Source: an uncultured Spirochaeta sp. (lineage in GTDB: Bacteria; Spirochaetota; Spirochaetia; DSM-27196; Alkalispirochaetaceae). From it: 64,000 bases of DNA. A program made the translations under genes and the position numbers. Below, in pieces: positions 29,685-59,194 of this stretch. The notes beneath the pieces are model-generated. The model had not been told where the DNA came from, searched no databases, and was given only the letters and a program-made list of their open reading frames with translations. Location of the stretch: positions 52,138-116,137 of the forward strand of contig CAJWEZ010000003.1 in assembly GCA_913030605.1 (NCBI GenBank). The letters run 5' to 3'. Position 1 is the stretch's first letter. Each line of letters starts with the position of its first letter.

Positions 29685-29757
29685 TTCGATCCATCAGCAA
29701 TCGCCTAAAACACCAAGCCGGCAGGCATCGAGACCACATTCTATGCGCAACGTATTA

Positions 29758-31706: not shown

Positions 31707-32458
31707 TTTGGGCTTCTCCGTTTTCGGAAAATGGACAGACTCTTTATCGCCTGATAAGAAAATGAAGCAACGAGTCTTGTTTTCAACGAAAAACTCAAGG
31801 GGCGAATGATGATATCAAGGTACAGATACTCGACCCATGTACGGAAGTTCGGCCTGGATGACATACCCCTATTGTTCATGAACGTAACCGGAGTGTTGAC
31901 TATGAGGTGAGACGCTGGCAAGGAGTACATTTCGTTGAAAATGCAGTCAGAAATGACCTTAAAGTACGTTTTGTATCCGCCATGGCTCAACAAAAAAGAC
32001 CGCTGGATCAGGGTTCCTTGATGATAGAAATCGATCGATCGGCGTTCCTTGCTATACGAAACATGTCTTGTAACACAACTCGTAGGATGTGCGCCGAATT
32101 TGATCGCAAAATAGATAGTTTTTATATCTGAATCTAAATATGGAAGTATGTGTTCCCCAATACTTGGAGCAATCAGTATGTCTCCCGCATTCAGGAACAA
32201 CACCCATTTCCCTTTCGCAATTCTGATCCCTTTGTTCATGGCGTCATATACGCCACGATCTGGTTCCGAGATCCATCGGAAGTTGCGATCATCAAATCGT
32301 TCCAGAAATTCTATTGTGCCATCACAAGACGCACCGTCCACGATCACATGCTCTATTGCGTGTCGTACCGTCTGATTCCTAATACTTCGAATTGTCAGGC
32401 GCAGATCGGCGAGCTGGTTTTTTACTACTGTGACAATGGAGAGCTGGACGGGCCTCAA
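31703..32458 (-). CDS. Glycosyltransferase family 2
   Basis: LSIVTVVKNQLADLRLTIRSIRNQTVRHAIEHVIVDGASCDGTIEFLERF...YDAMNKGIRIAKGKWVLFLNAGD. Confidence 0.9.
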   Translation of the reverse strand: MRPVQLSIVTVVKNQLADLRLTIRSIRNQTVRHAIEHVIVDGASCDGTIEFLERFDDRNFRWISEPDRGVYDAMNKGIRIAKGKWVLFLNAGDILIAPSIGEHILPYLDSDIKTIYFAIKFGAHPTSCVTRHVSYSKERRSIDFYHQGTLIQRSFLLSHGGYKTYFKVISDCIFNEMYSLPASHLIVNTPVTFMNNRGMSSRPNFRTWVEYLYLDIIIRPLSFSLKTRLVASFSYQAIKSLSIFRKRRSPN

Positions 32459-32518
32459 GATGAGTTCCTATTGGGGAAGAGATTGGAAATATTGTGTGAG
32501 GACACGACATAGCACAAT

Positions 32519-33928
32519 CTAACTCGCTGTCGACGCATGCGAGTTTGCTAAGTCCGATAGTGCATCTCGTGTCATCCAAACAGCCGAAGGTAATAGGGAA
32601 ACACAAGTTGCAATGGCAACGCCGGCTACGCCCAGGTCGAAAAACCGGACGAACAAAATTGAAAGGGGAATATTCAGTATTGCGCCAACCGTCGCGGTAA
32701 CCAACTGTACACGAAGCCTCGAAATACCATTAACGTACGTCGCGAAAATGTTGTTCCAGATCATGATTCCGAACATCAAAACCATCGAAAAAGCAAGGGA
32801 CAGCGGACTTTCCACACTCTCGGTAAGCCACAAATCGAGAAACCTATACCTCAACACCGATATGGCCAATAGTCCGCCGACGGCGGCAAAAAAAAGCCTA
32901 ACGAGGTTCGATAGCCGCTGTTTGATCCAAAGCCAATCCCCTTTTGTGTGTGCCGCGGTAAACGCAGACCACAACGGAGCCAATAGCATACCAAACAGCA
33001 AGTGTACGGTGCTAAATAGTTTGTGATTTACTGCGTAGACCGTTACCGATCTAGGACCCAGAAGATGACTCACAATCAGATTGTCGGTCGTGAAAATCAC
33101 AATCGTGGCTAGTTGGATTACAAAAAACTGGCCGCCCAACGAAAAAAGCCGCTGCGCGGTCTGGTGATCGTAGTACCTGATTCGAGGACGAAGTTCTGAT
33201 CCTGTTGCCAGGAACCACAAAGTGGCGAAAAACAGTACTGACAACGAAGCTATCGCATATGCCCCGGTTATGAGAGGAAGCGCAACCTCTGTCTTCGAAA
33301 CAGACCAATAAAACAGAACCCCCGCAAAAACCCCCTGTGTAACCAGCTGGATCACTGCAGGCACAGCAGCCATCTGTCTTCCATAGGCGATTGCGTTGAC
33401 AACCGAAAGCGGAAGGAGAGAGCACAAAAAAGCCCAGAACAACAAGGCAGATAGCCGGACTTCGATACTTGGCAACTCTTTCGCGCCGATGACCCTATTC
33501 CAATCGGCGGAACGATCAAACAGAAGAATGAGCAGAAATGCGAACAGCATTAGCGCAACTAGTATGACGTAGGCTGTTGAGATGGCTCTGGATGCACGAT
33601 GCCGATCGCGGTTCTGAAAGGCTTGTGCCAGCTCGTTGCGAACGCCGTGCACAACCCCCACGTCCATCATCGACACCCACGATAACATTGAAAGGAGTAC
33701 CGACCAAATGCCGTATCGATAGTCGCCCAAAATCGCAAGACTCAGCCTGACAACAACAAATGACAGCAGGAAAGAAAGGAGACGAAGCGCCAGATTAAGG
33801 GAACCATGAACACGAACTACTTTAGTGAGGTCCGGCGTGTTCTCGTGTGTTACGGTTGTTCTGGCCGTCAAGCGACACACCTTTCCCTGTGCGGATCTAT
33901 TGTCACCACATACCAAAATGGCCGACAA
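32519..33928 (-). CDS. Polysaccharide flippase (Wzx/MATE-like oligosaccharide translocase)
   Basis: Multi-pass membrane protein; NLALRLLSFLLSFVVVRLSLAILGDYRYGIWSVLLSMLSWVSMMDVGVVHGVRNELAQAF; start uncertain. Confidence 0.82.
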   Translation of the reverse strand: MSAILVCGDNRSAQGKVCRLTARTTVTHENTPDLTKVVRVHGSLNLALRLLSFLLSFVVVRLSLAILGDYRYGIWSVLLSMLSWVSMMDVGVVHGVRNELAQAFQNRDRHRASRAISTAYVILVALMLFAFLLILLFDRSADWNRVIGAKELPSIEVRLSALLFWAFLCSLLPLSVVNAIAYGRQMAAVPAVIQLVTQGVFAGVLFYWSVSKTEVALPLITGAYAIASLSVLFFATLWFLATGSELRPRIRYYDHQTAQRLFSLGGQFFVIQLATIVIFTTDNLIVSHLLGPRSVTVYAVNHKLFSTVHLLFGMLLAPLWSAFTAAHTKGDWLWIKQRLSNLVRLFFAAVGGLLAISVLRYRFLDLWLTESVESPLSLAFSMVLMFGIMIWNNIFATYVNGISRLRVQLVTATVGAILNIPLSILFVRFFDLGVAGVAIATCVSLLPSAVWMTRDALSDLANSHASTAS

Positions 33929-34322
33929 GATTGGGCCAAAAAAATGGTTCTACCGAAAATCAAAAACGCAATAGTGATCGCTACGGATGTCCTTCGCTTT
34001 CGGGGGACAAAACCAGAATCCTTGCGTCGCAGAACGAACCGATCCTTCCCAGTATAGATTCGGCGCGACTTTTTGTTCGGTGTGATAGTACTCACGTCAC
34101 AATCAGCCTTGATGAGCAAAAAAGCATCGCTGATGAGCGGCGGAAAGGTAGGACGGTATTTCTCCATGGAGAGTGTTTACGAACCAAACCGAACGCTCCG
34201 GAGATCCACCATGCATGCTATCCACAAATGTATCGACCTTCTGCGAAACTGCGGAAGCCATACGGTTCGCGGTCTGAGGATTCCGCAAAACCTGAGCCAA
34301 ACGATCCAGATTGTTCTTTGTC

Positions 34323-35214
34323 CGATACACGAGAGGTGGCACAGATGCAGTCGGTGCGGGTGTACAAGCTGCGACGATCATGATCTCACAACAAGCATTG
34401 TTCGAAACCCACCGGCAATCCAGTCACGCAGTCGAACTCCGTGTTGTCGTGTGCCGGGTGGTCTGTCCCGTATTTGGACCAAGCCATGAATGGATTCCTT
34501 TGCTGGACCAATGTACCCGAGTTACGACGCGCGTGGCCGAAAAGGGCTGCCAAATTGCAGAGATCATGACTATCAAGGATGTCACGGAGACGATTTTGCT
34601 TGCCCAGCAGACGGTCAAGACTATCTGCAAACGATAACCGAAACGCCTCCTTGAGTCAATCAATCTGAACAGTATTATTAGTGCTGTTGATCGATGAGCG
34701 TGCCATCCATAATGGATATCGTCCGTTATTGCCGCGAGGCAATTGATTACGTCCGCGTCGACGCCGTCAATCGCTATAGTTGTGATCCGATACGGCGACA
34801 ACTCATTAACGGATTGCGCTGGCGACTCCTTTGGAATCACGAAAAGCTCAGCCGCTCAGACAAGCACCGTCGGGTGGACGAACTCGTTGAGGTCAACAAG
34901 AGACTATCGTTGGCGTATATCAAGAAGAAGCACCTGAACCACCTCTGGACGTTTACTGATCAGGTCGCTGCACGTTTTCGGCGGCATCACTGGTTCCACT
35001 AGGCGATCGACACAACTACATCGATGCACTCCATTACGTTCGGGGAGTATCTATCCGTTCCTGGAAAGGGCTTGTGCTGGCGCACACAAAATACCAGTTG
35101 ACCTCCGGCATGCTCGAAAGTATGAACAACATGATCAAGGTCATAAGGCGCGTCGCACACGATTTTCGGTATGATCATTACGTTTTCTTCGTATCCGTCA
35201 CGAATTCCCTATAA
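34323..35214 (+). pseudogene. Decayed transposase (ISL3-family-like), multiple frameshifts
   Basis: Fragments in different frames: RCSRCG zinc-finger-like; RVVCPVFGPSHEWIPLLDQCTRVTTRVAEKGCQIAEIMTIKDVTE; LINGLRWRLLWNHEKLS...AYIKKKHLNHLW; LTSGMLESMNNMIKVIRRVAHDFRYDHYVFFV. Confidence 0.65.
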
Positions 35215-35341
35215 TTCCGCGCCAAATTGACTGTTTTGGCTTATGCGGTCGAAGTGATTATTTGCCAACCCGATGTGCAGATTTCGTGCAGAAGTCGAAG
35301 TCTTTTCGAACCTCCTTCGATTTTGTGAGTTTTTTGAGCTA

Positions 35342-36369
35342 TTACACGCTTCGATACGTCGACAGCCAGCCCATGAGAGTTTTGACACCAACTTCCGGTT
35401 TCACACGTGGCACCCAAGACACGGCACCTTCAATCATGTCGTTCGAAGCAACAAACACCTTCTGGTCGCGTCGCCGCGCTTCAAGGTGTTCCGGCACTAG
35501 ATCCACGTGAAGCTCGGCGGACAATTGGTCCAACAATTCTTGAATAGAGAACGCGTTTTGTACTCCGCCGCCAACATTGTACACACCGCCGGCGACGGTA
35601 TCGATCCGCTCGGCCGCAGAAAAATAGAGCCTGACGACGTCTTCTGCATGAAGTAGATCGCGCACCTGCTTACCGTTTCCGGCCACGGTAAACCGATGAT
35701 TGGGGTCCTCTTTGGTGCGAAGGGCCTGCATCGTGAACCAACCGACCCAACCCTGGTCAAACGTCGGATACTGACCACCTCCATACATCGACGAGTGCCT
35801 GAAGACAACAGTCTTGAGGCCGTACATTCGGTGATAGTCGCGAACATACTGGTCGGCAGCACCTTTGGAACAACCGTAAGGCGTGCTGAAATCGAGCGGA
35901 AGTGTCTCAGGGAGTCCTTTGGGATAGTCGACGCATTCATAACGAGTCTCCAACTCGTTGTAGCGGAGATCCTCCAGATCGCCGTACACTTTGTTCGTGG
36001 ACGAATAGAGGATTGCAGCCTCTGGACAGTGTTTTCTCACTGCCTCAAGAACCGAAACCGTTCCCATTGCGTTGATTTCGAAGTCCTTGAACGGCTGTTC
36101 CACAGACGTTGTCATGGCAACCTGGCCGGCCAGGTGAAAAACGACATCTGGTTTGACCAGTTCCACCGCGCGGTCGATGTCATGTCGGCTACGAACATCC
36201 CCATGGAAGAACTCGAATTCTCCTTGTCCCCTGAGCCAAGCGAGGTTCTGGGTGGATCCCGCCCGGCTCAGATTGTCAAACACGTAGAGTTGTTCCCCGC
36301 GACGGAGTACTTCCGCCGAAAGATTCGACCCAACAAAACCGCATCCACCAGTCACCAGATACTTCAACT
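35342..36369 (-). CDS. NAD-dependent epimerase, CDP-paratose/tyvelose 2-epimerase-like (RfbE-like)
   Basis: LKYLVTGGCGFVGSNLSAEVLRRGEQLYVFDNLSRAGSTQNLAWLRGQG...STNKVYGD...TPYGCSKGAADQYVRDYHRMYGLKTVVFRHSSMYG; likely TTG start after AAAGGAA. Confidence 0.8.
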
Positions 36370-44726: not shown

Positions 44727-44827
44727 GGTGCATGTCCTTTCCGTCGATGGGTGTGTCGCCAAAACCGGAGACAAAATGGTATCGAACGTGTATAATCTGA
44801 TTACATTTTACATAAACAGGTTTTTCA

Positions 44828-46633: not shown

Positions 46634-46789
46634 CGAAATTGTGTGCCACCCGGGGCGTACAACCTGCCAGCCGGGTGTTTGGCGGTAGCACCGCGGCCGG
46701 CTCCGCTCCGGTGGGGAGACGGGCCTGCCGTTGTGCGGGCCCGGCCCGCACCGCAGCCGCTCCGTTGAACCGGATGGGTCGACCTTCCC
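46634..46789. repeat. Intergenic repeat copy R1 (blocks C-D-E)
   Basis: gaaattgtgtgccacccggggcgtacaacctgccag...ccgctccggtggggagacgggcc...gctccgttgaaccggatgggtcgaccttccc. Confidence 0.75.
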
Positions 46790-46810
46790 GTCCCGCCTAC
46801 CGTCTACCGC

Positions 46811-48025
46811 CTACCCCCTGTACGCCACGATCTCCCGAATGACCGCTTCCGCCTCCCGGGAACGGTCGAGACCCACGGTCAGCGAGAAGCTCGCGCGATC
46901 GTCACGCCAGCGATAGACCGCAATCGGTATCACCTCCGGCGCCCGGCTGGGATCGCTGACGCGCGTTCCCCACATGACCACACGCTCCACCGGGAGGCCG
47001 AGCTGGAGCGTATCGCGAGACTGAACGAAGCGGGGGTCCTCGTCGGCGGCGGGGCGGTACTGCCCGTCGTGAATGGACACCACCAGTGCGCCGCGCTGGT
47101 CGGGGGCGCGGTAGAACAGCTCGACGGAGCGCACTAGGGCACCGTCGACCGCGTTCTCGACCACATATCGCCCGTCGGCGGTGAGCGGATCGTCGGCTCC
47201 CGCGATCAGTATCTCCCGCGGGGCGCTCGCGTCGAATCCGACCTCCCGCGAGAGCTGATCGTCGTCCACATCGAATCGGGGTTTCCGGACGGCGGCCGCC
47301 GCGGCGGTCATCGTGTGCCGTTCGTCGGTGGTGGGAGCTCGCCGGGTGAGCTGCGGCTCCGCGGCGGCACCCTCACCGGGAGTGAGGAACCAAAACTCCT
47401 CGCCCTCATCGAGCTGCCGCTTAAGCGCCCCGACACGGTGGTGCGCCTCGATGTACGCCAACCGGTCTCTGTCGGAGCCGTCCCAGTTGCCGATGCCCCC
47501 GGACCCCTGCGGCGTCCAGTAGCGGATCATGTACTCCGCCTCGGTCAGGTCGAGGTCCTGTTGAAACACGAGCGTCTGCTCGTCGGTGTTCCACCGGTAA
47601 TCGTACCCCTCTATCGCCAGCCTGCCGTCGAGAACGACGAGGAGATCCTCCACCGCGCCTCCCGCAGACCCGAGAACGAACCGGTGCGGCCGGCCGGTTC
47701 GCCCTTCCACGTGAAGAATCGGTTCGTCGGTGGGCTGCGGCTCGGACAGGCGAAGCTCGGTTGTGTCGGCGTCGTACTCCCACTCGTTTGCGGGGATCTC
47801 CCACCGCCTGGAACGGTCGGTGCCGTCGATCACGATGATTCGCTCGATGAGATCGAACGTCTGGACGGTGAAGAACCGACCGTCCTGATCCGGCCCGAGA
47901 TTGACCGACAGTGCGTCGAGTCCCCGCGCGTCGATGGAACTCGTGACGCACGATACGACCACGCTTCCGACGGCAACGATGAACATCACCACAAATGGAA
48001 CGGTCCCCTTCAGTGTTCGCTTCAC
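46811..48025 (-). CDS. Hypothetical lipoprotein
   Basis: MKRTLKGTVPFVVMFIVAVGSVVVSCVTSS lipobox; 404 aa ORF. Confidence 0.7.
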   Translation of the reverse strand: MKRTLKGTVPFVVMFIVAVGSVVVSCVTSSIDARGLDALSVNLGPDQDGRFFTVQTFDLIERIIVIDGTDRSRRWEIPANEWEYDADTTELRLSEPQPTDEPILHVEGRTGRPHRFVLGSAGGAVEDLLVVLDGRLAIEGYDYRWNTDEQTLVFQQDLDLTEAEYMIRYWTPQGSGGIGNWDGSDRDRLAYIEAHHRVGALKRQLDEGEEFWFLTPGEGAAAEPQLTRRAPTTDERHTMTAAAAAVRKPRFDVDDDQLSREVGFDASAPREILIAGADDPLTADGRYVVENAVDGALVRSVELFYRAPDQRGALVVSIHDGQYRPAADEDPRFVQSRDTLQLGLPVERVVMWGTRVSDPSRAPEVIPIAVYRWRDDRASFSLTVGLDRSREAEAVIREIVAYRG

Positions 48026-48122
48026 GATCGATCCTCCTCTCAGGATGTCACGCCGGAGCGTACACCGCGGGAGGGCTCACCGATATCGGCCAAAGGAACG
48101 AATCGTGGACCGCGAGAAGAAT

Positions 48123-48803
48123 TCATACTTTCCGCCGGTCGTGGGAGCGGAGGATGTGGGCGACCTCGGTCCGGTTGCGGGCCCCGGTCTTGCGAAAAAT
48201 GCTCGCGATGTGGCTCTTGACCGTGGAGATCGAGACGAACAGCCGCTCGCCGATCTCCCTGTTGGTCTTACCCGCCGCCAGGAGGAGCGCCACCTCCCGT
48301 TCGCGCTCCGAGAGACCGAGCGACACGGTCCAGGAATCCGACGCACCGGCGATGCCGGACGACGAACGCCGTCGGAGTCGGTAGCGGTGGCGGGTCGCGA
48401 TCACGATTGCGGTCGCCGTCAGGATCGCGGCCAGGACCAATGCCGCTGCGACGCTCGCGTCGACGATCGCCTCTATCGTTTGAATCAGCGCCCCACCGAT
48501 GACCGCGAGGGCGAATACACCCACCGGCGCAAACGCGACCGCGAACACAGCGCGCCGCCCTCCCGCAGAGAGGCGGTGTCGTGTCAGTGTCAGGATGCCG
48601 ACGAGGGCAAAGTACGCCAGGCACGAGGCGGAATAGACCTCCAGCGCGTCGAGGAGCAGGTAGAGCCGCATGCCGAAATAAGCCGGGAACGCCATCATCC
48701 CGGCACGTCCGTTGGCAATCCAGAGCGCCAACAGAATCAGCGCCGCTATGGCGACGCCCCATCGTTCCCGTGTGCCGGTCGAGATACCGTCCGCCGCTCC
48801 CAT
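48123..48803 (-). CDS. LuxR-family transcriptional regulator with N-terminal membrane domain
   Basis: C-terminal LSEREREVALLLAAGKTNREIGERLFVSISTVKSHIASIFRKTGARNRTEVAHIL; N-terminal TM segments; start at ATG 48803. Confidence 0.88.
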   Translation of the reverse strand: MGAADGISTGTRERWGVAIAALILLALWIANGRAGMMAFPAYFGMRLYLLLDALEVYSASCLAYFALVGILTLTRHRLSAGGRRAVFAVAFAPVGVFALAVIGGALIQTIEAIVDASVAAALVLAAILTATAIVIATRHRYRLRRRSSSGIAGASDSWTVSLGLSEREREVALLLAAGKTNREIGERLFVSISTVKSHIASIFRKTGARNRTEVAHILRSHDRRKV

Positions 48804-48867
48804 ATATCGAGTATAGTCCCGGTCGCGGAGATGCGGACAGGGCACGGGTCGCGCGTGGGCACCACGG

Positions 48868-49020
48868 GGTGCCTGTAGCATGTTGTTCACCCTTCGCGGC
48901 ACACCTTTTCCAGGCGCTGCAGGCAGCGCGGCGGCCGCAGCGCCGGTTGGCGTCCGCGAAACCGGTGGTGCAGGGTGCGGTCTGCGGCGGCCCGTTCCGT
49001 TGAACGGGATGAGTAGACGG
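48868..49020. repeat. Intergenic repeat copy R2 (blocks A-B-E)
   Basis: gcctgtagcatgttgttcacccttcgcggcacacctttt...ggtggtgcagggtgcggtctgcgg...gttccgttgaacgggatgagtagac. Confidence 0.75.
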
Positions 49021-49046
49021 CATCTGTCCTCCCCGCTCCGCTGCGA

Positions 49047-50450
49047 CTACGACTTCGGTTTGACTCCACCCTTCCGTCCGAGGCGGAACCCGACCCTGTA
49101 GAGGTCAGGCATGTCTATTCGCCCGTCACGACGGGTCTCAATGAGGCCCAGACGCTCCAGGTCACTTCGGACTCCGTCCCAGCCACGGTCGGCGTGTTGA
49201 GCGGGAAGAGCCTCAGGAGAGATCTGATCGGGTCCTTCGGGAAACGTTCGTCGCCAGCGATCGACGATATCGTCCCACGGCGAGGGAACATTCATCCCTT
49301 CCAACGCGGTGAGAAGGTTCACGACCCACGGGTACTCTTCGGCCAGTTCAAACACGCGATTCTCCGAGGCCTTCTGGATGCCGCGTTTGATGCTTTCGTA
49401 GTGCAACGCGACGTCGTGGTCCGGATATCGTTCCTCGGAGTCCTCGGCACCCTGACGAATGGCAGACAGAAAAGACCGCGGGGTGGTCCTGCCCCGCCCG
49501 TCGGCGAGGTGTCCCACCGCCCACGTGTACGGCACGCCTCTGCGTCTGTCCCGGCCCATCCACGGACCGGCCAGTTTCCTGAACGCGGCCCGTTGCGCAT
49601 CGCTGTCCCGTTTCATTTCATCTGCCGGCGCCCAGACGCCGTTGCGCTCGCGGGTTTCGCACAAGGCCCTGAGATTCTTTCCATGTTCCCCTGGCGCGTT
49701 TACCAATCGTTGCCACAGCAGTCCATGAAGATCGTGTCGAGCCCATGTCAGTTCCGCCTGAAGCGCGCGAAGCTTGGACGCATCCGGAAAATTAAAAACC
49801 TCGCGCTCTGCTTGATCCTCCCTGAGAAAGACCTTGGCATGCAGTTTCGGAAATGTTTTTGTCCAAAGAACCGCGCGCAGCAGACCGCGGACGATGGAGT
49901 CCATATCGTTCCAGTTGGTGCTGGTACGGTCCAACGCATCAAACACAATGAGTCCGGGTCGAGTTCGACGCGATTCCATGATTCGCGAGACCTGTTCCGG
50001 ATTCGCCTTGATCCAGGAAACCGAATCGGCCCAAGAGGCTGTCGGGATTTCTTCCTCCGTTTGACGCGCCACCCATCGAAGCACGACTGCGCGCCACAGA
50101 TCAAACGGGTCCCCTCTCCCATCGAGAAACCGCGCGAATACATCGGGACTGGGGTATGAGTGTATGTCAGACCGTGTTCCAAACCCGACGTGTACGTCGA
50201 CTCCGTCGATTTCCGGCACGGCGGTTCCGACGAATGACCGAAGGTCGGGCGACTGAAGCGCCGATGTCCAGAACGATTTTCCCACGCCCCGGGCACCGAT
50301 CACGATACTTGAATCGAGCCGCAACGCCTTGAGATGCGCGATTGGTACGTACAGTGTTCCATTGGCGGGGGTGTCGCCGGCGTTTGTCGATTCGAGCGGC
50401 GCGGAAAGAATGGCCCTGCGGACTTCCCTGGCGGACAATGATTCGCTCAT
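49047..50450 (-). CDS. P-loop ATPase (AAA/STAND-like), third gene of coupled operon
   Basis: Walker A GARGVGKS, Walker B LIVFDALDR, RTTPRSFLSAIR motif, C-terminal winged-helix-like RSDLERLGLIETRRDGRIDMPDLYRVGF. Confidence 0.75.
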   Translation of the reverse strand: MSESLSAREVRRAILSAPLESTNAGDTPANGTLYVPIAHLKALRLDSSIVIGARGVGKSFWTSALQSPDLRSFVGTAVPEIDGVDVHVGFGTRSDIHSYPSPDVFARFLDGRGDPFDLWRAVVLRWVARQTEEEIPTASWADSVSWIKANPEQVSRIMESRRTRPGLIVFDALDRTSTNWNDMDSIVRGLLRAVLWTKTFPKLHAKVFLREDQAEREVFNFPDASKLRALQAELTWARHDLHGLLWQRLVNAPGEHGKNLRALCETRERNGVWAPADEMKRDSDAQRAAFRKLAGPWMGRDRRRGVPYTWAVGHLADGRGRTTPRSFLSAIRQGAEDSEERYPDHDVALHYESIKRGIQKASENRVFELAEEYPWVVNLLTALEGMNVPSPWDDIVDRWRRTFPEGPDQISPEALPAQHADRGWDGVRSDLERLGLIETRRDGRIDMPDLYRVGFRLGRKGGVKPKS

Positions 50451-51748
50451 GGTTTCGCGTCATCCATTCCGATCGTCACTGCGACACCGTCCAACAAAGG
50501 TCCGAACACCGCCATCACTTGCTGAGCGTCGATGTCGGCGAAACGTCCTTCCAACGACCGGATCGCCGAAAACGACCGGTGCCAGCGAACGGCCCACGGG
50601 GCGTGGGGAGCTGTCTCGTCATGCTCCTCGAAGTGCCAGTAGTCCGCCGTCACGCTGCCCGGCGGCACATCGTCGTAGAGTCCTTGCGCGAACAGCTCGT
50701 AGGAACGCTCGCGAAGACCTGCGAGATAATCCGCAGTCTCGATCTCCGGCACCAGGGCTGCGACAACCTGGAGTCGGTCACGTATTTTGTTCGCGGCATC
50801 GGTTCTCTGCCAATTGGAAAAAAGCATGTTGTACCCGTTCCACGTTTGATGCCCTTCAATTGCAAACATGAGCACCAGTCGTGCACCGAGGGCGGTGACA
50901 CATCCCGACGAGATTTCGTCTATGCCCGATCGGGAATCGATGAGAACGACGTCGGGCTTCACGGTGTCTTCAAGCTGTCCCACGAGCCGCCGAAGCCGAC
51001 CATCCCACAATTGACGTCCCCCGGCAGGATCGTCCACTGACATCCACACGCGCCCGAGTTTTGAGAGGTATTCTCCGGGATCCCGGCCGTGGGCCGGTGC
51101 GACGTAGATCTCACCGTCGTGAGACAGAGGGCTGGCCGATACCATCGCTTCAAGAACGGTTGAGCCGTTACCCACGAGATCTTCCACCAGCCAATCAGTT
51201 ATGCCGTACTGCGGTTGTCGGTCTTCCGGCAGGAGTTCCGACGACAGTCCAGGAGACTCAAGATCGAGGTCGAGTACGAGAACCCTCAGTCCGGCCTGTG
51301 CCAGGTGCCAGGCGGTAATCGCGAGAGCGGTCGACCGGCCGACACCGCCCTTGATCGAGTAAAACACGATGCGGGGAGGATCGTTTGCCATGTCATGAAT
51401 GGACTGCCAGGTGGAATCGGTGGCCAGCCGGTCGACCACGATGCCGTTCGGGACGTTGTGCAACGGAAACTGGGCCGCACCGAGACAGACCGAATCGCGA
51501 TCTGACTCGTACAGGAGACTGGAAGACGTGGCATAGCCGTGTGGCCCCAGCTGATCCATGACTGCATCTGCAACGTTTTGAACTGCCAACTTGAGTTCCG
51601 GGCGATCAGCGATCGCGCTGGGCACAACGAAACGAACACGACCGGTCAAGTCACGGTTGACCAAGACCCAATCCAATTGCTGGATCGTGTCGGCGTGCGA
51701 TGAGAACACCTTTTCCACGATCGGGAGAACGTTATCGAATGTCGTCAT
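50447..51748 (-). CDS. KGGVGR-motif variant AAA ATPase (ParA/MinD-like)
   Basis: IVFYSIKGGVGRSTALAITAWHLAQAGLRVLVLDLDLESPGLSS; DVVLIDSRSGIDEIS; ATGA overlaps with both neighbours. Confidence 0.85.
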   Translation of the reverse strand: MTTFDNVLPIVEKVFSSHADTIQQLDWVLVNRDLTGRVRFVVPSAIADRPELKLAVQNVADAVMDQLGPHGYATSSSLLYESDRDSVCLGAAQFPLHNVPNGIVVDRLATDSTWQSIHDMANDPPRIVFYSIKGGVGRSTALAITAWHLAQAGLRVLVLDLDLESPGLSSELLPEDRQPQYGITDWLVEDLVGNGSTVLEAMVSASPLSHDGEIYVAPAHGRDPGEYLSKLGRVWMSVDDPAGGRQLWDGRLRRLVGQLEDTVKPDVVLIDSRSGIDEISSGCVTALGARLVLMFAIEGHQTWNGYNMLFSNWQRTDAANKIRDRLQVVAALVPEIETADYLAGLRERSYELFAQGLYDDVPPGSVTADYWHFEEHDETAPHAPWAVRWHRSFSAIRSLEGRFADIDAQQVMAVFGPLLDGVAVTIGMDDAKP

Positions 51749-52161
51749 ACCAGCCCCTCCAGTTGAGCTTGTTGTATGAGCCCGTGAACTTCACGGGCGC
51801 CGGCGCGATGAGGATTTACCCGGGCGAGGTCGAACTGGTCCTGTCGGGAATACCGTTGTGACACGTTCCAGTTGTCGAACGGTGCCGGGGTTGACAACGG
51901 GTATCGGCTACCCGCCGGACGCCCCTGTCTGTATGTCTCATACCGGTACCAGATGCGATCGATGTGTCGTTGATCTGCGACGTCCTGTGGCCGATCATTT
52001 TGGGAATCGTACCTCATCCCAAATTCGACCATAAGCTTCTTGAGACCGCACTCCGCCGATAAACCGTAGAGATGGTCTGCGTTCGCCAGCCGTCCTGCGG
52101 AATGAAGGGCCTCCGCGTCGGTCAAGTGTCGTTCGTGCGCATCAAGAAAGTCGGTGTTCAC
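51745..52161 (-). CDS. Small HEPN-like protein, first gene of coupled operon
   Basis: ERHLTDAEALHSAGRLANADHLYGLSAECGLKKLMVEFGM resembles HEPN N-terminal helices; ATGA overlap with next gene. Confidence 0.6.
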   Translation of the reverse strand: MNTDFLDAHERHLTDAEALHSAGRLANADHLYGLSAECGLKKLMVEFGMRYDSQNDRPQDVADQRHIDRIWYRYETYRQGRPAGSRYPLSTPAPFDNWNVSQRYSRQDQFDLARVNPHRAGAREVHGLIQQAQLEGLV

Positions 52162-52262
52162 CTGGAGAACTCTATCACAACGCCGAAAAAACGTGTGCCA
52201 TGATCGAAAGGTGCACAGTCCCAGCTGCCGCCGAGAGCCCGCGCACCCAACGCCGAGACGTC

Positions 52263-52363
52263 AGAATTGTGTGCCGCTCAGGATGAGCACCTTGTCAGGG
52301 GCGCGTTTTTGTCGCCGGCAGCGACGGGCCCCGCTCCGGTGAACCGGATGGGTCGACCTTCCC
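52263..52363. repeat. Intergenic repeat copy R3 (blocks C-E)
   Basis: agaattgtgtgccgctcaggatgagcaccttgtcagggg...ccccgctccggtgaaccggatgggtcgaccttccct. Confidence 0.7.
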
Positions 52364-52424
52364 TCTGCACTCCCCGAGCCCCCCGGTCCTTGACGTGTCC
52401 CGGGCGTGGTGCGTACGCTATCCA

Positions 52425-52498
52425 CAGAACAGGGGTGCCGAAAGGCTGAGATCATACCCGTAGAACCTGAACTGGGTAATGCCAGCGGAGGGATTCGA
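52425..52498 (+). ncRNA. TPP riboswitch (THI element)
   Basis: cagaacaggggtgccgaaaggctgagatcatacccgtagaacctgaactgggtaatgccagcggaggga matches the conserved THI-box; followed by thiamine-type transport genes. Confidence 0.93.
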
Positions 52499-52567
52499 TG
52501 ATCCATTTCTTGTGCGCGTGTGACGCGGTGCAGGGCACCCCGGATTTTTCCGTGAAGGGGGTGCGCC

Positions 52568-52870
52568 ATGAACGCACGAACACGCAACGTTTCGATACAG
52601 GTCCTTCCACTCATTCCCGACGCGATTCCCGTGGTCGATAAGGCGATCCGCGTGATCCAGGACAGCGGTGTGCGCTACGAGGTGGGTCCGATGGAAACCA
52701 CTCTGGAGGGCGAAGACCTCGATGAGCTGCTCACCGTTGCCCGGCGCGCCCACGAGGCGTGCTTTGACGGCGCCGACACGGTGGTGACGGTGATCAAGAT
52801 CGCCGACTCGGTGAACGGCACGTCGATCGAGGGCAAGACGGCGAAGTACCGCGGCGGCGCGGCGGGATGA
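52568..52870 (+). CDS. Thiamine-binding protein (MTH1187/YkoF-like)
   Basis: SIQVLPLIPDAIPVVDKAIRVIQDSGVRYEVGPMETTLEGEDLDELLTVARRAHEACF. Confidence 0.88.
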   Translation: MNARTRNVSIQVLPLIPDAIPVVDKAIRVIQDSGVRYEVGPMETTLEGEDLDELLTVARRAHEACFDGADTVVTVIKIADSVNGTSIEGKTAKYRGGAAG

Positions 52871-53652
52871 ACGCCCGCACGGTGGTACCGCCGGCCGCGG
52901 TGATCGTGGGTGCGGTGGTGGCGTGGCACGTGGTGGTGATCGCCAGCGGCCTGCCACCGTTTATCCTGCCGTCGCCGGTGGGGGTGGTGCGCTCGGGGGT
53001 GGAGACGTGGAACGTCCTGGGCCCGGCGATCGTGACCACGCTCTCCGAGACGCTCCTGGGGCTCGCGATTTCGGTCACCCTGGGGGTGGCGTTTGCCGGT
53101 GCCATGGACCTGGTGCCGCTGGTGCGGCGGGCGCTCTACCCGCTCCTGGTCGCCTCGCAGACGGTGCAGATCCTGGCGATCGCGCCGCTATTGGTGATCT
53201 GGTTCGGCTTTGGCCTCACCCCAAACATCATCGTGGTGGTGCTGTTCACCTTCTTTCCCATGACGGTGGCCACCGTGGATGGGCTGACCTCGACCGACCC
53301 CGACTACATTCGCCTGCTGCGCTCGATGGGGGCCTCCCGTGCCCGGATCTGGCGCACGGTGCGCCTGCCGGCGGCGCTGCCCTCGTTCTTCAGCGGCCTG
53401 CGGTTGTCGGTGACCTACAGCGTGGTGGCGGCCACGGTGGGCGAATGGGTGGGCGGCTCCGGCGGGCTGGGGCTGTACATGCTGCGCTCCAAGAACGCGC
53501 TGGAGACGGACCAGGTCTTTGTGGCGATGGTGATCACCACCCTGTTGAGTATTGGTCTGTTTCTCTGTGTCTTCCTCTGCGAACGCCTGGCGCTGCCGTG
53601 GTACTACACCGCGCAGCGCCGCGAGCAGTGGGACGAGCAGGGAATCTACTGA
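52867..53652 (+). CDS. ABC transporter permease (thiamine-precursor type)
   Basis: EMV-like GASRARIWRTVRLPAALPSFFSGLRLSVTYSVVAATVGEWVGG. Confidence 0.92.
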   Translation: MNARTVVPPAAVIVGAVVAWHVVVIASGLPPFILPSPVGVVRSGVETWNVLGPAIVTTLSETLLGLAISVTLGVAFAGAMDLVPLVRRALYPLLVASQTVQILAIAPLLVIWFGFGLTPNIIVVVLFTFFPMTVATVDGLTSTDPDYIRLLRSMGASRARIWRTVRLPAALPSFFSGLRLSVTYSVVAATVGEWVGGSGGLGLYMLRSKNALETDQVFVAMVITTLLSIGLFLCVFLCERLALPWYYTAQRREQWDEQGIY

Positions 53653-53676
53653 CAAATCGAACCCGAGGAGGATGCG

Positions 53677-54702
53677 ATGGTCCGTATGTTTGTGTTCCGT
53701 GTGTTTGTGATGGTGTGTGCGCTTGCGGCGCCGGTGGTGTACGCCGGTGGCGCGGCTGAGTCCGACGCGGCGGGAGCCGGGGATGCCGGGGCGCCGGTGC
53801 AGCAGGTGACGTGTATGCTCGACTGGGTGCCCAACGTGAACCACGTGGGGATCTTTGTGGCGCAGGACCGCGGCTTCTTTGCCGATGAGGGCCTGGCGGT
53901 CGATATCATCCAGCCGGGGGAGGTGGCGGCCAACGCGGCGGTCGCCAGCGGTCGGGCTGATTTCGGTGTGGGCTTTCAGGAGAACCTGACGCTCCTGCGC
54001 GCGGACGATGTCCCCCTGGTGTCGATCGCGGCGATGCTGCAGACGAACACCTCGGGGTTTGCGGTCCGCGCGGGTGAGGGTGTGGAGACGCCGGCGGACT
54101 TTGCGGGACTGACCTACGGCACGTTTCAGTCGCCGTTTGAGGAGCCCACGCTGACCTCGCTGGTGGAGGCCGCCGGCGGCGACGCCTCCGGTATCGAGTA
54201 CGTGCCGGCGGGGTCGGAGTTGCTGGCGATGCTGCAGCAGGAGCGCGCGGACATCGTGTGGATCTACTACGGCACGCAGGGGTTTCAGGCCGAGCGTGTG
54301 GGGATCGATATCGACTACTTTCCACTGAACGAGTACCCCGACGCGGTTCCCGACTACTACACGCCGGTGATCATCGCGAGCGAGTCGATGCTCGCCGACA
54401 ACCCGGAGCTCACGCGGGCGTTCCTGGCGGCGCTGAGCCGCGGGCACCGCTATGTGGTGGACCACCCGCAGGAGTCGGCGCGCATTCTCGCGGAGGCGGT
54501 GCCGGAACTGAACGCGGAGCAACTGGGCAAGAGCGTTCCCTGGCTCGCGCAGCGCATGGTGATGGATGCGCCGGAGTGGGGCTACCAGGAGGTGTCGGTC
54601 TGGCGCGAGTACGCGGCGTGGATGCGCGATGTGGGCGTGCTGGAGGGCGAGTTTGACCCGTCCTCGGCGATGACCAACGCCTTTCTCCCGGGGCAGCAGT
54701 GA
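53677..54702 (+). CDS. ABC transporter substrate-binding protein (NMT1/THI5-like)
   Basis: VTCMLDWVPNVNHVGIFVAQDRGFFADEGLAVDIIQPGE. Confidence 0.93.
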   Translation: MVRMFVFRVFVMVCALAAPVVYAGGAAESDAAGAGDAGAPVQQVTCMLDWVPNVNHVGIFVAQDRGFFADEGLAVDIIQPGEVAANAAVASGRADFGVGFQENLTLLRADDVPLVSIAAMLQTNTSGFAVRAGEGVETPADFAGLTYGTFQSPFEEPTLTSLVEAAGGDASGIEYVPAGSELLAMLQQERADIVWIYYGTQGFQAERVGIDIDYFPLNEYPDAVPDYYTPVIIASESMLADNPELTRAFLAALSRGHRYVVDHPQESARILAEAVPELNAEQLGKSVPWLAQRMVMDAPEWGYQEVSVWREYAAWMRDVGVLEGEFDPSSAMTNAFLPGQQ

Positions 54703-55541
54703 CTGCCACGACGACGCGGGACCCTGAGGCGACCCCGCGCCTGGCGGTGGATCGCGTGTCGATGACGTTTCACGGTGAGGCGGGGGCTGTTGAGGCCCTC
54801 GCCGATGTCTCCTTTGACGTACACCGCGAGGAGATCGTCACGGTGATCGGGCCGAGCGGGAGCGGGAAGAGCACGCTCTTTAACGTGATCACCGGGCTGA
54901 TCGAGCCGCAGGCGGGGGCGATCCGCATCGACGGCCGGGAACTCGCCGACCGCACCGGTGCGGTGGCGTACATGCCGCAGCGCGACCTGCTCCTGCCGTG
55001 GCGGACGGTGCTGGACAACGTGGTGCTGCCGCTGGAGATCCAGGGGGCCGGCGGGACGCGGGCGCGAGCACGAGGTCGAGCGAAGGCGCCGGCGCGGGAG
55101 CGGGCGCGCGAACAGGCGCGGGAGCGAGCGCGGGAGCTCATGCCACGCTTCGGCCTCGAAGGGTTCGAGAACCACTACCCGGCGGTACTCTCCGGCGGCA
55201 TGCGCCAGCGCGCGGCGTTCCTGCGCACGGTGATGAGCGGTCGTGAGACGCTGCTTCTGGACGAACCGTTCGGCGCGCTGGACGCACTGACCCGCCGGCG
55301 GCTGCAGGACTGGCTCCTGGAACTCCAGCGCGAACTGGAGCGCACGATCCTCTTCATCACCCACGATGTGGAGGAGGCGGTGTACCTCGGCGACCGCGTG
55401 GTCGTACTGAGCCCGCGCCCGGGGCGGGTGCAGACCACGATGCCGGTGGACCTCCCGCGCCCCCGCCATCAGCAGATGATCGGGGACCCGGCCTTCGGCC
55501 GCCACGTGGCAACGCTCCTGGAGGAGCTCGGGGTCAGGTAG
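54699..55541 (+). CDS. ABC transporter ATP-binding protein (thiamine-precursor type)
   Basis: GPSGSGKSTLFNVITGLIEP...LSGGMRQRAAFLRTVMSGRETLLLDEPFGALDALTR. Confidence 0.95.
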   Translation: MTATTTRDPEATPRLAVDRVSMTFHGEAGAVEALADVSFDVHREEIVTVIGPSGSGKSTLFNVITGLIEPQAGAIRIDGRELADRTGAVAYMPQRDLLLPWRTVLDNVVLPLEIQGAGGTRARARGRAKAPARERAREQARERARELMPRFGLEGFENHYPAVLSGGMRQRAAFLRTVMSGRETLLLDEPFGALDALTRRRLQDWLLELQRELERTILFITHDVEEAVYLGDRVVVLSPRPGRVQTTMPVDLPRPRHQQMIGDPAFGRHVATLLEELGVR

Positions 55542-55577
55542 CGGGAGCGAGCGCCGGCGGCGCTGGTCGGGGCTGTG

Positions 55578-55860
55578 GCGCCCCGCGCGGCCACTGGCCG
55601 CCAGTCCCACGGGTCGCCTGTAGCACGTTGTTCACCCTTCGCGGCACACCTTTTTCCTCGCCGCGCGCGACTCGGGCGGCCGCGGGCGAGCGCCGCGGGT
55701 AGCCGCTGCGCCGGTTGGCGGCTGCGACACTGGTGGTGCAGTGCGCGGTCTGCGGGGCCGCGGGCGCCGCGTCATCGGTGGCGAGATTGTGTGCCACCCA
55801 AGGTGAACAACTTGCCAGCGGGCGCCGTTTTTTGGCGGCGCCGGCGTGTTGACCGGGCTG
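55578..55860. repeat. Intergenic repeat copy R4 (blocks A-B-C plus hairpin)
   Basis: First ~190 bp nearly identical to R5 (56533 onward); contains inverted blocks A (gtagcacgttgttcacccttcgcggcacacc) and C (gtgtgccacccaaggtgaacaacttgcc). Confidence 0.85.
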
Positions 55861-55869
55861 GAGGGCGTG

Positions 55870-55883
55870 ATTACAGTAATTAC
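55870..55883. promoter_or_regulatory. Operator-like AT palindrome before mazE-like gene
   Basis: GATTACAGTAATTACATG: palindromic GTAATTAC directly upstream of ATG. Confidence 0.4.
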
Positions 55884-56138
55884 ATGAAGACGAAGGTGAT
55901 TCGGATCGGCAACTCCCGCGGCGTCCGAATTCCGGCGGCGGTTCTTCAGGCGTACGACATTCACGAGGGGGACGAGTTGGAACTTGATCGGCGCAGGGAG
56001 GGCATCCTGCTGTCGGTCGTCAATCGACCGTCGGTTCTCAGCTATGAGGAATCCTATCGCCAGATGGCGGCCGAGGCCGCGGAACACGCGGAGTGGTCGG
56101 CGTGGGACACGGTGGCTGGAGACGGCGTTGATGATTGA
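55884..56138 (+). CDS. AbrB/MazE-family antitoxin
   Basis: MKTKVIRIGNSRGVRIPAAVLQAYDIHEGDELELDRRREGILL. Confidence 0.92.
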   Translation: MKTKVIRIGNSRGVRIPAAVLQAYDIHEGDELELDRRREGILLSVVNRPSVLSYEESYRQMAAEAAEHAEWSAWDTVAGDGVDD

Positions 56139-56475
56139 GCGCTACGGTGTGTACTGGGTGAACCTGGATCCGGTGATTGGCCGCGAGATGGCAAAGCGGC
56201 GACCGGCGGTTGTCGTCAGCGACGACGCGATGAACCGCGTGCTGGGAACCGTTGTTGTCTGTCCCCTGACTTCATCGCGTCATCCGGCGTGGCCAAGTCG
56301 GGTCGCGTGTTCCGTCGGCGATATCGATGGCGAGATCGCGGTGGACCAGATTCGAACGGTGTCCCGTCGCCGCATCGGCGACTGTCTCGGCACGATCGAT
56401 GAGAGTGCGGCGGCGACGATCCGCCACGTGATCACCGAGATGTACGGGATCCTGGCGACGTCGGTGGAGGAGTAG
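56131..56475 (+). CDS. MazF-family endoribonuclease toxin
   Basis: RYGVYWVNLDPVIGREMAKRRPAVVVSDDAMN...VVVCPLTSS...DGEIAVDQIRTVSRRRI; overlaps antitoxin stop. Confidence 0.93.
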   Translation: MIERYGVYWVNLDPVIGREMAKRRPAVVVSDDAMNRVLGTVVVCPLTSSRHPAWPSRVACSVGDIDGEIAVDQIRTVSRRRIGDCLGTIDESAAATIRHVITEMYGILATSVEE

Positions 56476-56532
56476 GGCCCGGGGCTGCTGCGGCGCCCTC
56501 GCTGGCGCGGCGCCCTCGCTGCTGCAGGCTGC

Positions 56533-56760
56533 GGCGCCCCGCCCGGCCACTCGCCGCCAGTCCCACGGGTCGCCTGTAGCACGTTGTTCACCCTTCGCGG
56601 CACACCTTTTTCGTCGCCGCGCGCGACACGGGCGGCCGCGGGTGGCCGCTGCTCCGGTTGGCGGCCGGGACACAGGTGGTGCAGTGCGCGGTCTGCGGGG
56701 TCGGGCCGGGTTATCGATGGGCGAAATTGTGTGCCGCCCAAGATGGTCAACGTGCTAGGG
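56533..56760. repeat. Intergenic repeat copy R5 (blocks A-B-C)
   Basis: Near-identical to R4; ccagtcccacgggtcgcctgtagcacgttgttcacccttcgcggcacaccttttt shared. Confidence 0.85.
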
Positions 56761-56826
56761 GACAATTGTGGGAGCGGTCGCCCACTGGGAGCTGCTGGTT
56801 CACAGGTGCTCCGGCTCTCCGGACGG

Positions 56827-56925
56827 GCCGCCTGGCCCCGCTCCGGTGGGGAGACGGGCCCGCTGTTGTGCCGGGCCGGGTGCTTTGGAGGCGGGCGCGG
56901 CGGTCTGTGAGCTCGCCCCGGCCCG
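56827..56925. repeat. Intergenic repeat copy R5b (block D)
   Basis: ccgcctggccccgctccggtggggagacgggcccgctgttgtg...gggtgctttggaggcgg...tgagctcgccccggcccg, near-identical to 57684-57782. Confidence 0.85.
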
Positions 56926-56936
56926 GTTCCCGAAGA

Positions 56937-57191
56937 TTACTCCGTTGGGTCCGGCCAGGCTCTGGTGATGGCCGCGGCGAAGGCGCGGAACACACTCAGT
57001 TGCTCGGTGCACAGGCGGTACACGATCGCCCAATCCATCTCTTGATACTCATGAACCGCGATGTTTCGAAACCCCACGGCACGGGACAGACCGGTTGCAA
57101 GATCCCTGGCCAGCACTCCATGCGACGACAGGATGGCGAACGTCTCCGCCATGGTGGTCGGCGCCTCCCAACTTTGCGTCGAGCAGGTCAT
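56937..57191 (-). CDS. HepT-like (DUF86) HEPN toxin, apparently N-terminally truncated
   Basis: PTTMAETFAILSSHGVLARDLATGLSRAVGFRNIAVHEYQEMDWAIVYRL: RX4HXY motif present, N-terminal ~50-60 residues absent. Confidence 0.8.
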   Translation of the reverse strand: MTCSTQSWEAPTTMAETFAILSSHGVLARDLATGLSRAVGFRNIAVHEYQEMDWAIVYRLCTEQLSVFRAFAAAITRAWPDPTE

Positions 57192-57631
57192 TGTCCGGCA
57201 ATGAGTCTCTCCCGTCCCCGCGCGCGGATCATGCGTACGTTGGGCAGCATGTCTTCCACGAAATCCAGCATTCGAATGATGAGTTCCGCCCGTACGGTTG
57301 GATCGCGCTGAAGGACAACCCGTCCGCTCGTGAGGATCTGCTTCAGGAACACGCCCCGCGCCGCAGACAGGTCACGGACCTGCACTTCTCGGCCGATCAG
57401 CCGGCCCGCCTCCAGGCTGACCGCGAGCAGTGTGTCATGCGGCACGGGCGTTCGGGCATCCACGGCGAGGGCCAGATCGATGTCGCTGTCGGCGTGGAGC
57501 GTGCCGGTAACCGCGGAGCCGTAGAGAATGCCGAGTTGCAGGTCCCGGTGGCCCTTGAGGACCTGAACGAGCTGGTCGACGATCGCGTCGAGGTCGCGGG
57601 ATGGGTCCGGGACGGAGGATCCGTGTGCCAT
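57188..57631 (-). CDS. MntA-type minimal nucleotidyltransferase antitoxin
   Basis: LQLGILYGSAVTGTLHADSDIDLALAV: GSX10DXD motif; C-terminal RAELIIRMLDFVEDMLPNVRMIRARGRE; ATGA overlap with HepT-like gene. Confidence 0.9.
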   Translation of the reverse strand: MAHGSSVPDPSRDLDAIVDQLVQVLKGHRDLQLGILYGSAVTGTLHADSDIDLALAVDARTPVPHDTLLAVSLEAGRLIGREVQVRDLSAARGVFLKQILTSGRVVLQRDPTVRAELIIRMLDFVEDMLPNVRMIRARGRERLIAGQ

Positions 57632-57663
57632 GCGATTTCTTCCCTGTGTTGAGGGTACTGGAA

Positions 57664-57822
57664 AGATGAACTCGTTGCCACTAGCCGCCTGGCCCCGCTC
57701 CGGTGGGGAGACGGGCCCGCTGTTGTGCGGGGCCGGGTGCTTTGGAGGCGGACGCCGCGGTCCGTGAGCTCGCCCCGGCCCGCACCCAAGGCGCTCCGTT
57801 GAACCGGATGGGTCGATCTTTT
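57664..57822. repeat. Intergenic repeat copy R6 (blocks C-D-E)
   Basis: gatgaactcgttgccactagccgcctggccccgctccggtggggagacgggccc...gctccgttgaaccggatgggtcgat. Confidence 0.85.
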
Positions 57823-57838
57823 CCTTGACATCGGTGTA

Positions 57839-57861
57839 GTTACCACATACCATTACCACAT
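57839..57861. promoter_or_regulatory. Operator-like direct repeat before vapB-like gene
   Basis: gTTACCACATaccaTTACCACATgg, two copies of TTACCACAT overlapping the start codon. Confidence 0.45.
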
Positions 57862-58135
57862 GGCAATTGCGAAGCAGCGGACGAGTTTCGCGCTGGACGG
57901 GGAGACGATTCGGTTGCTGCAGGCGCTGGCGAACCGGTGGCAGGTGTCGCAGGCGGAGGTTGTGCGTCGGGCGGTGCGCCTGGCGTCGGAGGCGGACCGG
58001 TCCGATGCCGAGGGGCTCATTGCGCGGCTGGACGATTACCGCGCCGCGGGTCGGCTGACGGCGGAGGAGGCGGAGGCGTATCTGGGCGCCGTCGCCGAGG
58101 GTCGCGCGTCGTGGGACCGGGGGCCGGGCTCGTGA
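57860..58135 (+). CDS. Ribbon-helix-helix antitoxin
   Basis: KQRTSFALDGETIRLLQALANRWQVSQAEVVRRAVRLASE. Confidence 0.85.
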   Translation: MAIAKQRTSFALDGETIRLLQALANRWQVSQAEVVRRAVRLASEADRSDAEGLIARLDDYRAAGRLTAEEAEAYLGAVAEGRASWDRGPGS

Positions 58136-58518
58136 TTCTCCTGGATACGAACGTGCTCATCCGTATGCTGGTCGCAGACACGGTGGCTGCAGACCGGGTC
58201 TCGGCGTGGATCGGCGACGGGACCGATCTGTGCACCTCCACGGTCTGCTGGTACGAGTTTCTCAGCGGGCCGGTGGATGAGGAGGGCGTGGCGCTGGTTT
58301 CGACGGCCCTTGCCGACCGGGTGATTCCCTTCACCGCCGATCAGGCGCAGGAGGCCGCCCGGCTGTGGAACGCCGCCGGCCGGATGCAACGGATGCGTAT
58401 CGATGCGATGGTGGCGGCGGCGGCGATCGTCTCCGGCGCGAGTCTGGCAACTGCGAACCGCGATGATTTCCTGCCCTTTGTGGACGCGGGACTGCGGCTG
58501 ATCGAGGAGTCGGTCTGA
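58132..58518 (+). CDS. PIN-domain toxin (VapC-like)
   Basis: GTG start; MILLDTNVLIRMLVADT...STVCWYEFLSGP...RMRIDAMVAAAAIVSGASLATANRDDFLPF acidic residues. Confidence 0.9.
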   Translation: MILLDTNVLIRMLVADTVAADRVSAWIGDGTDLCTSTVCWYEFLSGPVDEEGVALVSTALADRVIPFTADQAQEAARLWNAAGRMQRMRIDAMVAAAAIVSGASLATANRDDFLPFVDAGLRLIEESV

Positions 58519-58571
58519 CCGCGGGATGAGCGGGCCGGATGGCGCCGGTTGAGCCGCTGGTCGGGCGGTCG

Positions 58572-59060: not shown

Positions 59061-59194
59061 CTATGGTTCTCGTGTTGCGTCCGCGTCGGAGCCGAGGCGG
59101 CGCCGCGCCCTTCGATGATACGACCAATCGGTCGTGACCACAAGGAAATGTGCTCGCGCCGGCGGCCCGGGGCCGGACGGCAGTCTGCGGCGCC

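What the first reader, a model, noticed from the sequence alone, without database searches (positions are those of the whole stretch)
55578..57822. Toxin-antitoxin modules bounded by near-identical direct repeats (cassette-like array)
mazEF (55884-56475) lies between R4 and R5, which are almost identical over roughly 170-190 bp in the same orientation. The MntA/HepT pair (56937-57631) lies between R5b and R6, near-identical over about 98 bp, also in the same orientation. VapBC follows R6 directly. This repeat-module-repeat-module-repeat layout is what a gene-cassette array or a repeat-driven insertion/exchange site would produce. No integrase or transposase is visible nearby, so the mobilising machinery, if any, acts in trans.
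Basis: partly seen in the sequence, partly recalled or inferred. Interest (0 to 1): 0.85.

Follow-up and report, generated by a model that had tools for sequence, protein, structure and literature searches.

The report
Repeat-bounded toxin-antitoxin island, not an integron
In an uncultured spirochaete, six related copies of a private palindromic repeat sit between neighbouring defence, toxin-antitoxin and vitamin-transport modules; they look like the joints of a cassette array but are clearly not the sites used by the real integron that the same genome carries elsewhere.

Summary
Six related sites (S1-S6, all on the + strand) occupy six successive boundaries between transcription units at 46,636-57,820. 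They flank a lipoprotein/LuxR pair, a complete PDC-M28 candidate defence operon, a riboswitch-controlled thiamine-transport operon, mazEF, hepT-mntA and vapBC. They are mosaics of shared blocks around a long palindrome. Outside this stretch only one solo arm was found in the 4.07-Mb genome. The arm is absent from 394 other phylum genomes and 85,488 GTDB species. The integron reading was tested directly. The genome has a true integron integrase (contig C42) and a true toxin-antitoxin cassette array with canonical attCs (contig C53). Covariance models built from those attCs, or from relatives' attCs, find the real arrays with strong scores and find nothing at the window repeats. No RAYT transposase was found, and no dif-like site lies in the repeats. 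Best reading: a lineage-specific, MITE-like palindromic repeat inside a defence island, with modules gained and lost mainly by homologous recombination between copies. Two nested cases (mazEF, hepT-mntA) look like one-crossover integrations. The recombining machinery is not shown; no empty site could be compared.

The parts
46636..46790 (+). Site S1: R arm + T hairpin + short S + E block, uninterrupted (resembles an unoccupied site)
46811..48858 (-). Module 1: 404-aa protein of unknown family plus a LuxR-type regulator (identified by eye from the translation)
48862..49018 (+). Site S2: L arm + M + E (no R arm)
49047..52161 (-). Module 2: complete PDC-M28 A/B/C candidate anti-phage defence operon
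   Evidence: 647, 568 and 183 bits
52265..52363 (+). Site S3: R arm + T hairpin + E block
52420..55541 (+). Module 3: TPP riboswitch (52420-52510) and thiamine-binding/ABC transport operon
   Evidence: ThiY absent from 6/6 genus mates
55551..55860 (+).
   Evidence: fold z -3.2
55884..56475 (+). Module 4: mazEF, promoter-like site directly after the repeat (55849-55877)
56507..56925 (+).
   Evidence: fold z -2.7
56937..57631 (-). Module 5: hepT-mntA; HepT lacks its N-terminal ~60 residues
57684..57820 (+).
57860..58518 (+). Module 6: RHH antitoxin/PIN toxin (VapBC-like), promoter-like site at 57825-57853; no repeat follows it

Best explanation
A chromosomal defence/toxin-antitoxin island in an uncultured Spirochaetaceae bacterium whose module joints are copies of a lineage-specific, non-autonomous palindromic repeat (MITE-like: inverted arms CTGTAGCACGTTGTTCACC-N6-GGCACACC facing GTGTGCC-N6-GGTGAACAACTTGCCAG, plus the attached blocks A, T, S and E). 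Shown: the sites, their mosaic make-up, their confinement to the island, the self-contained modules between them, and that they do not score as attC sites. Inferred: modules entered and can leave by homologous (RecA-type) crossover between repeat copies. A circle or fragment carrying module plus one repeat recombines with a resident repeat and leaves the module between two direct copies; mazEF between two A-L-M-R copies and hepT-mntA between two S copies are the two clearest cases, and S1 resembles an unoccupied site. The repeats themselves were probably spread by a transposase that is no longer recognisable here.
For: Six sites in one orientation at six successive unit boundaries and none at the neighbouring boundaries. 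Own-genome searches find only these sites and one solo arm on C63. Exact shared tracts of 60 nt (S4/S5) and 45 nt (S5/S6) are long enough, by general knowledge, for RecA recombination. Palindromes fold better than shuffles, z -3.2 and -2.7. The 99-bp S block is 96% identical on both sides of hepT-mntA with abrupt ends, while S1 carries R-T-S-E without a gap. Modules carry their own promoter-like sites or riboswitch. ThiY is absent from all genus mates. attC, RAYT and dif readings were tested and failed.
Against: No sister strain with an empty or differently filled site is held, so gain and loss of modules is inferred. No target-site duplication could be seen by eye around the palindromes, and no transposase was found near the C63 arm. 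Repeat divergence (S4/S5 82-88%) means at least that event is old. Simple independent spread of repeats next to genes would look similar.
Confidence: 0.5

Rival explanations
1. The repeats are MITE-like elements that inserted next to genes in a tolerant genomic island and have nothing to do with how the modules arrived.
For: Palindromic, about 190-205 nt, GC-rich, non-coding, intergenic; a solo arm elsewhere at C63; mosaic internal deletions as in decayed elements.
Against: No target-site duplication; similarity extends outside the palindrome on both sides (A, S, E blocks); direct duplication of the 99-bp S block, which lies outside the palindrome, around hepT-mntA; one orientation only; almost no copies elsewhere.
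Confidence: 0.25
2. A dedicated, undescribed site-specific cassette system (not IntI) recognises the arm motif GTTCACC-N6-GGCACAC and moves modules in trans.
For: Two short inverted boxes separated by six unpaired bases on each arm, conserved in S2, S4, S5 and C63; modules self-contained and in either orientation; unique to this lineage.
Against: No candidate recombinase next to the array; the only Pfam phage-integrase hits in the genome are a XerC/D-like pair, the IntI and one edge fragment in probable contaminant DNA; R arms drift and lose pairs rather than co-vary (by eye).
Confidence: 0.12
3. It is a degenerate integron array (CALIN) served in trans by the IntI on contig C42.
For: A true IntI is present (TIGR02249, 385 bits against a cut-off of 265); a GTTGAAC box ends S1, S2 and S6; cassette-like layout.
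Against: Two attC covariance models that recover the genome's own C53 array and four relatives' arrays give no hit at any of the six sites at E up to 10; the whole-genome search lists C53 almost alone; no BLAST similarity to C53 attCs.
Confidence: 0.04
4. The repeats are structured regulatory or insulating elements kept between transcription units.
For: Every copy lies between transcription units; stable folds.
Against: No Rfam match, no excess of terminator-like sites and none at the repeats, pairing not conserved between S4 and S5, absent from the rest of the genome.
Confidence: 0.07

Closest known systems
Chromosomal integrons of spirochaetes (Treponema, PMC3607928; Spirochaetes-type attC, PMC8352920)
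   Same: Array of accessory modules, many toxin-antitoxin, separated by palindromic repeats in one orientation; IntI is in the genome.
   Different: The repeats do not score as attC with models that find the real arrays; modules are multi-gene operons with their own promoters in both orientations; the genome's true array is on contig C53.
TIMEs and TIME-COMP composites (PMC4133298)
   Same: Short non-autonomous palindromic elements; direct or inverted pairs bracket gene modules and can mobilise them.
   Different: No 5-bp target duplication seen; similarity extends past the inverted arms; no donor transposase found.
dif (pdif) modules of Acinetobacter (PMC6449649, PMC12907356)
   Same: Adaptive or toxin-antitoxin modules bracketed by short recombination sites, recombinase in trans.
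   Different: No dif-like 28-mer in the repeats (best 16 of 28 against 20 of 28 elsewhere in the window).
REP/REPIN elements with RAYT
   Same: Palindromic intergenic repeats.
   Different: No Y1 transposase in the genome; unit far longer; not scattered genome-wide.

Membership tests
Integron cassette array / CALIN | attC sites between cassettes (R''-L''...L'-R' with the AAC/GTT core) | tested here: not met
   Models R1 and R2 recover C53 and the relatives' attCs but nothing at S1-S6
Integron cassette array / CALIN | IntI-type integrase available in the genome | tested here: met
   C42:10948-12336, TIGR02249 385 bits; its contig carries no repeats like these
Integron cassette array / CALIN | One or a few promoterless ORFs per cassette in the attC direction | tested here: not met
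   Multi-gene operons on both strands with promoter-like sites and a TPP riboswitch; a soft criterion, since toxin-antitoxin cassettes often carry promoters
MITE | Terminal inverted repeats | tested here: met
   Arms pair in S4 and S5; z -3.2 and -2.7
MITE | Target-site duplication | tested here: not met
   None seen by eye in the flanks of S4 and S5; ends are blurred by shared A/T/S/E blocks
MITE | Autonomous relative with matching ends | tested here: inconclusive
   Arm pattern occurs only here and as one solo arm on C63; the draft genome may miss it
REPIN/RAYT | RAYT (Y1_Tnp) transposase in the genome | tested here: not met
   PF01797: no match
dif module | 28-bp XerC/XerD site at both ends | tested here: not met
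   Best 16 of 28 in the sites
Variable cassette site | Empty or differently filled sites in sister strains | not testable with these tools
   No close strain held; relatives' cysD-cysNC loci share none of the modules

The most novel reading that the evidence does not exclude
A non-integron cassette system: a spirochaete lineage captures whole defence, toxin-antitoxin and metabolic operons between copies of a private palindromic site through an unknown trans-acting recombinase, side by side with a true integron in the same genome.
Probability: 0.12. Interest if true: 0.8.

Novelty: new variant of a known kind. Interest (0 to 1): 0.45.

Why it matters
How defence islands add and drop modules without visible mobile elements is an open question. 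Here the joints between modules are visible as a private repeat family, in a genome whose real integron gives a built-in control. If strains with other fillings are found, repeat-driven module exchange becomes directly testable. It also warns against calling every repeat-bounded toxin-antitoxin array an integron.

Tried and rejected
Own hand-made attC scanner: too unspecific, replaced by covariance models. First model run with filters off: not informative, because the same setting missed a known 77-nt attC; repeated with default filters. By eye the S1 end boxes (GTACAAC...GTTGAAC) and the L/R arms looked attC-like; rejected by the models and because the inner triplet of the arms is ACC/GGT. 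Empty-site search through ThiY, CheX and CysNC in relatives: only distant neighbourhoods, no usable site. Pattern scan of viral contigs failed twice. Plasmid collection: no match. ORFs inside the repeats: no family except the MazE that one of them overlaps. Rfam at loose threshold: only the TPP riboswitch.

Full report
Check of the observation. The window is contig C3:52138-116137 of a 4.07-Mb draft genome in 100 contigs. CysNC relatives place it in the Spirochaetaceae; the nearest is 74% identical. S4/S5 (R4/R5) are 88% identical over 146 nt without gaps and 82% over 272 nt with gaps, with a 60-nt exact block. S5/S6 (R5b/R6) are 96% identical over 99 nt. A self-comparison of the whole window shows that every significant repeat pair belongs to this one family and lies between 46.6 and 57.8 kb.

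Anatomy. Six sites, all in + orientation, are built from shared blocks in a fixed order A-L-M-R-T-S-E, each site lacking some blocks: S1 = R-T-S-E, S2 = L-M-E, S3 = R-T-E, S4 = A-L-M-R-T, S5 = A-L-M-R-spacer-S, S6 = S-E. L and R are inverted arms; S4 and S5 fold into long hairpins better than shuffles (z -3.2 and -2.7). The E block occurs three times with at most one mismatch against 0.00 expected. All six sites lie at successive boundaries between transcription units; the boundaries just outside (44775-44827, 58519-58571, 59061-59194) have none.

What lies between them. A 404-aa protein of unknown family plus a LuxR-type gene; a complete PDC-M28 A/B/C candidate defence operon; a TPP riboswitch and thiamine-binding/ABC transport operon; mazEF; hepT-mntA; a VapBC-like pair. 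HepT has lost its N-terminal half. Promoter-like sites stand directly after S4 and S6, before mazEF and vapBC. ThiY has no match in any of six genus mates or the one family mate, and one 41% match in the order, so at least that operon is accessory.

Distribution. Own-genome searches find only these sites plus one solo arm on C63. The arm pattern is absent from 394 other genomes of the phylum and from 85,488 GTDB species; the longest site has no match in 119 relatives or in plasmids.

The integron test. The genome encodes a genuine integron integrase on C42 (TIGR02249, 385 bits against a cut-off of 265). Sixteen of 61 genomes searched, the window's own among them, have one over the cut-off. Four relatives' loci (G004, G006, G008, G050) hold unmistakable attC arrays. 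Model R1, built from 20 of those attCs, finds held-out sites, including a cassette array on contig C53 of the window's own genome. C53 carries VapBC-like, HigBA, BrnT/CopG-antitoxin, MntA-HepT and HigA-like genes between attCs. Model R2, built from seven C53 attCs, recovers the relatives' arrays at E down to 4e-20 and lists C53 almost alone in the whole genome. Neither model hits any of the six window sites at E up to 10. The only R2 hit in the window is at 14424-14514, 12.4 bits, E 1.3. So the integrase that could act in trans exists, but its sites are elsewhere and look different.

Other machinery. No Y1/RAYT transposase. Pfam phage-integrase hits are a XerC/XerD-like pair on C67, the IntI, and an edge fragment on C35 beside dsbC- and hom-like genes that is probably contaminant DNA. 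No dif-like 28-mer lies in the repeats. No structured RNA family other than the riboswitch. No transposase-like ORF lies inside the repeats.

How it most likely works. hepT-mntA splits what S1 shows as a continuous S-E region and leaves a 99-bp S copy on both sides; mazEF lies between two A-L-M-R copies. Both are what a single crossover between a resident repeat and a molecule carrying module plus repeat would leave. Exact shared tracts of 45-60 nt are enough for RecA by general knowledge. I therefore favour repeat-mediated homologous recombination in a defence island, using a MITE-like repeat of extinct or unseen origin (0.5). Plain spread of repeats without a role in module gain (0.25) and a dedicated unknown recombinase (0.12) remain open. 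Gain and loss of modules is inferred; no empty site could be compared because the nearest held genomes are too distant.

Limits. The genome is a draft and the assembly of the array was not checked with reads. Absence of target-site duplications was judged by eye. Two viral-collection scans failed. The pattern scans of other genomes need an exact arm, so diverged relatives of the repeat could be missed.

Noticed in passing
L095 (contig C53:1-12000 of the same genome): A genuine integron cassette array with about ten attC sites and mostly toxin-antitoxin cassettes (VapBC-like, HigBA, BrnT/CopG antitoxin, MntA-HepT, HigA-like); two HigBA cassettes are 91% identical over 886 bp.
   Followed up: partly
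L019 (contig C42:10948-12336): Integron integrase with a long N-terminal extension ahead of the usual IntI domain, followed by an AAA_21 ATPase gene; no attC array on this contig.
   Followed up: partly
L058, L061, L063, L070 (G006, G004, G008, G050): IntI plus attC arrays in four relatives from the same genus, order and class; a 2013 paper (PMC3607928) held Treponema to be the only integron-bearing spirochaetes.
   Followed up: partly
window 49047-52161: Complete PDC-M28 A/B/C candidate phage-defence operon whose middle protein matches the KGGVGR-motif AAA ATPase model.
   Followed up: no
window 56937-57191: HepT lacks about 60 N-terminal residues but keeps the RNIAVH catalytic motif; MntA keeps its GSX10DXD motif.
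   Followed up: partly
window 52420-55541: TPP riboswitch plus thiamine-binding and ABC transport operon lying between repeat sites, absent from genus mates.
   Followed up: partly
window 26700-35400: Block of glycosyltransferase-like genes with low G+C at third positions, likely horizontally acquired.
   Followed up: no
L018 (contig C35:1-1754): xerD fragment, dsbC-like and homoserine dehydrogenase order typical of Gammaproteobacteria; probably contaminant DNA in the draft genome.
   Followed up: no
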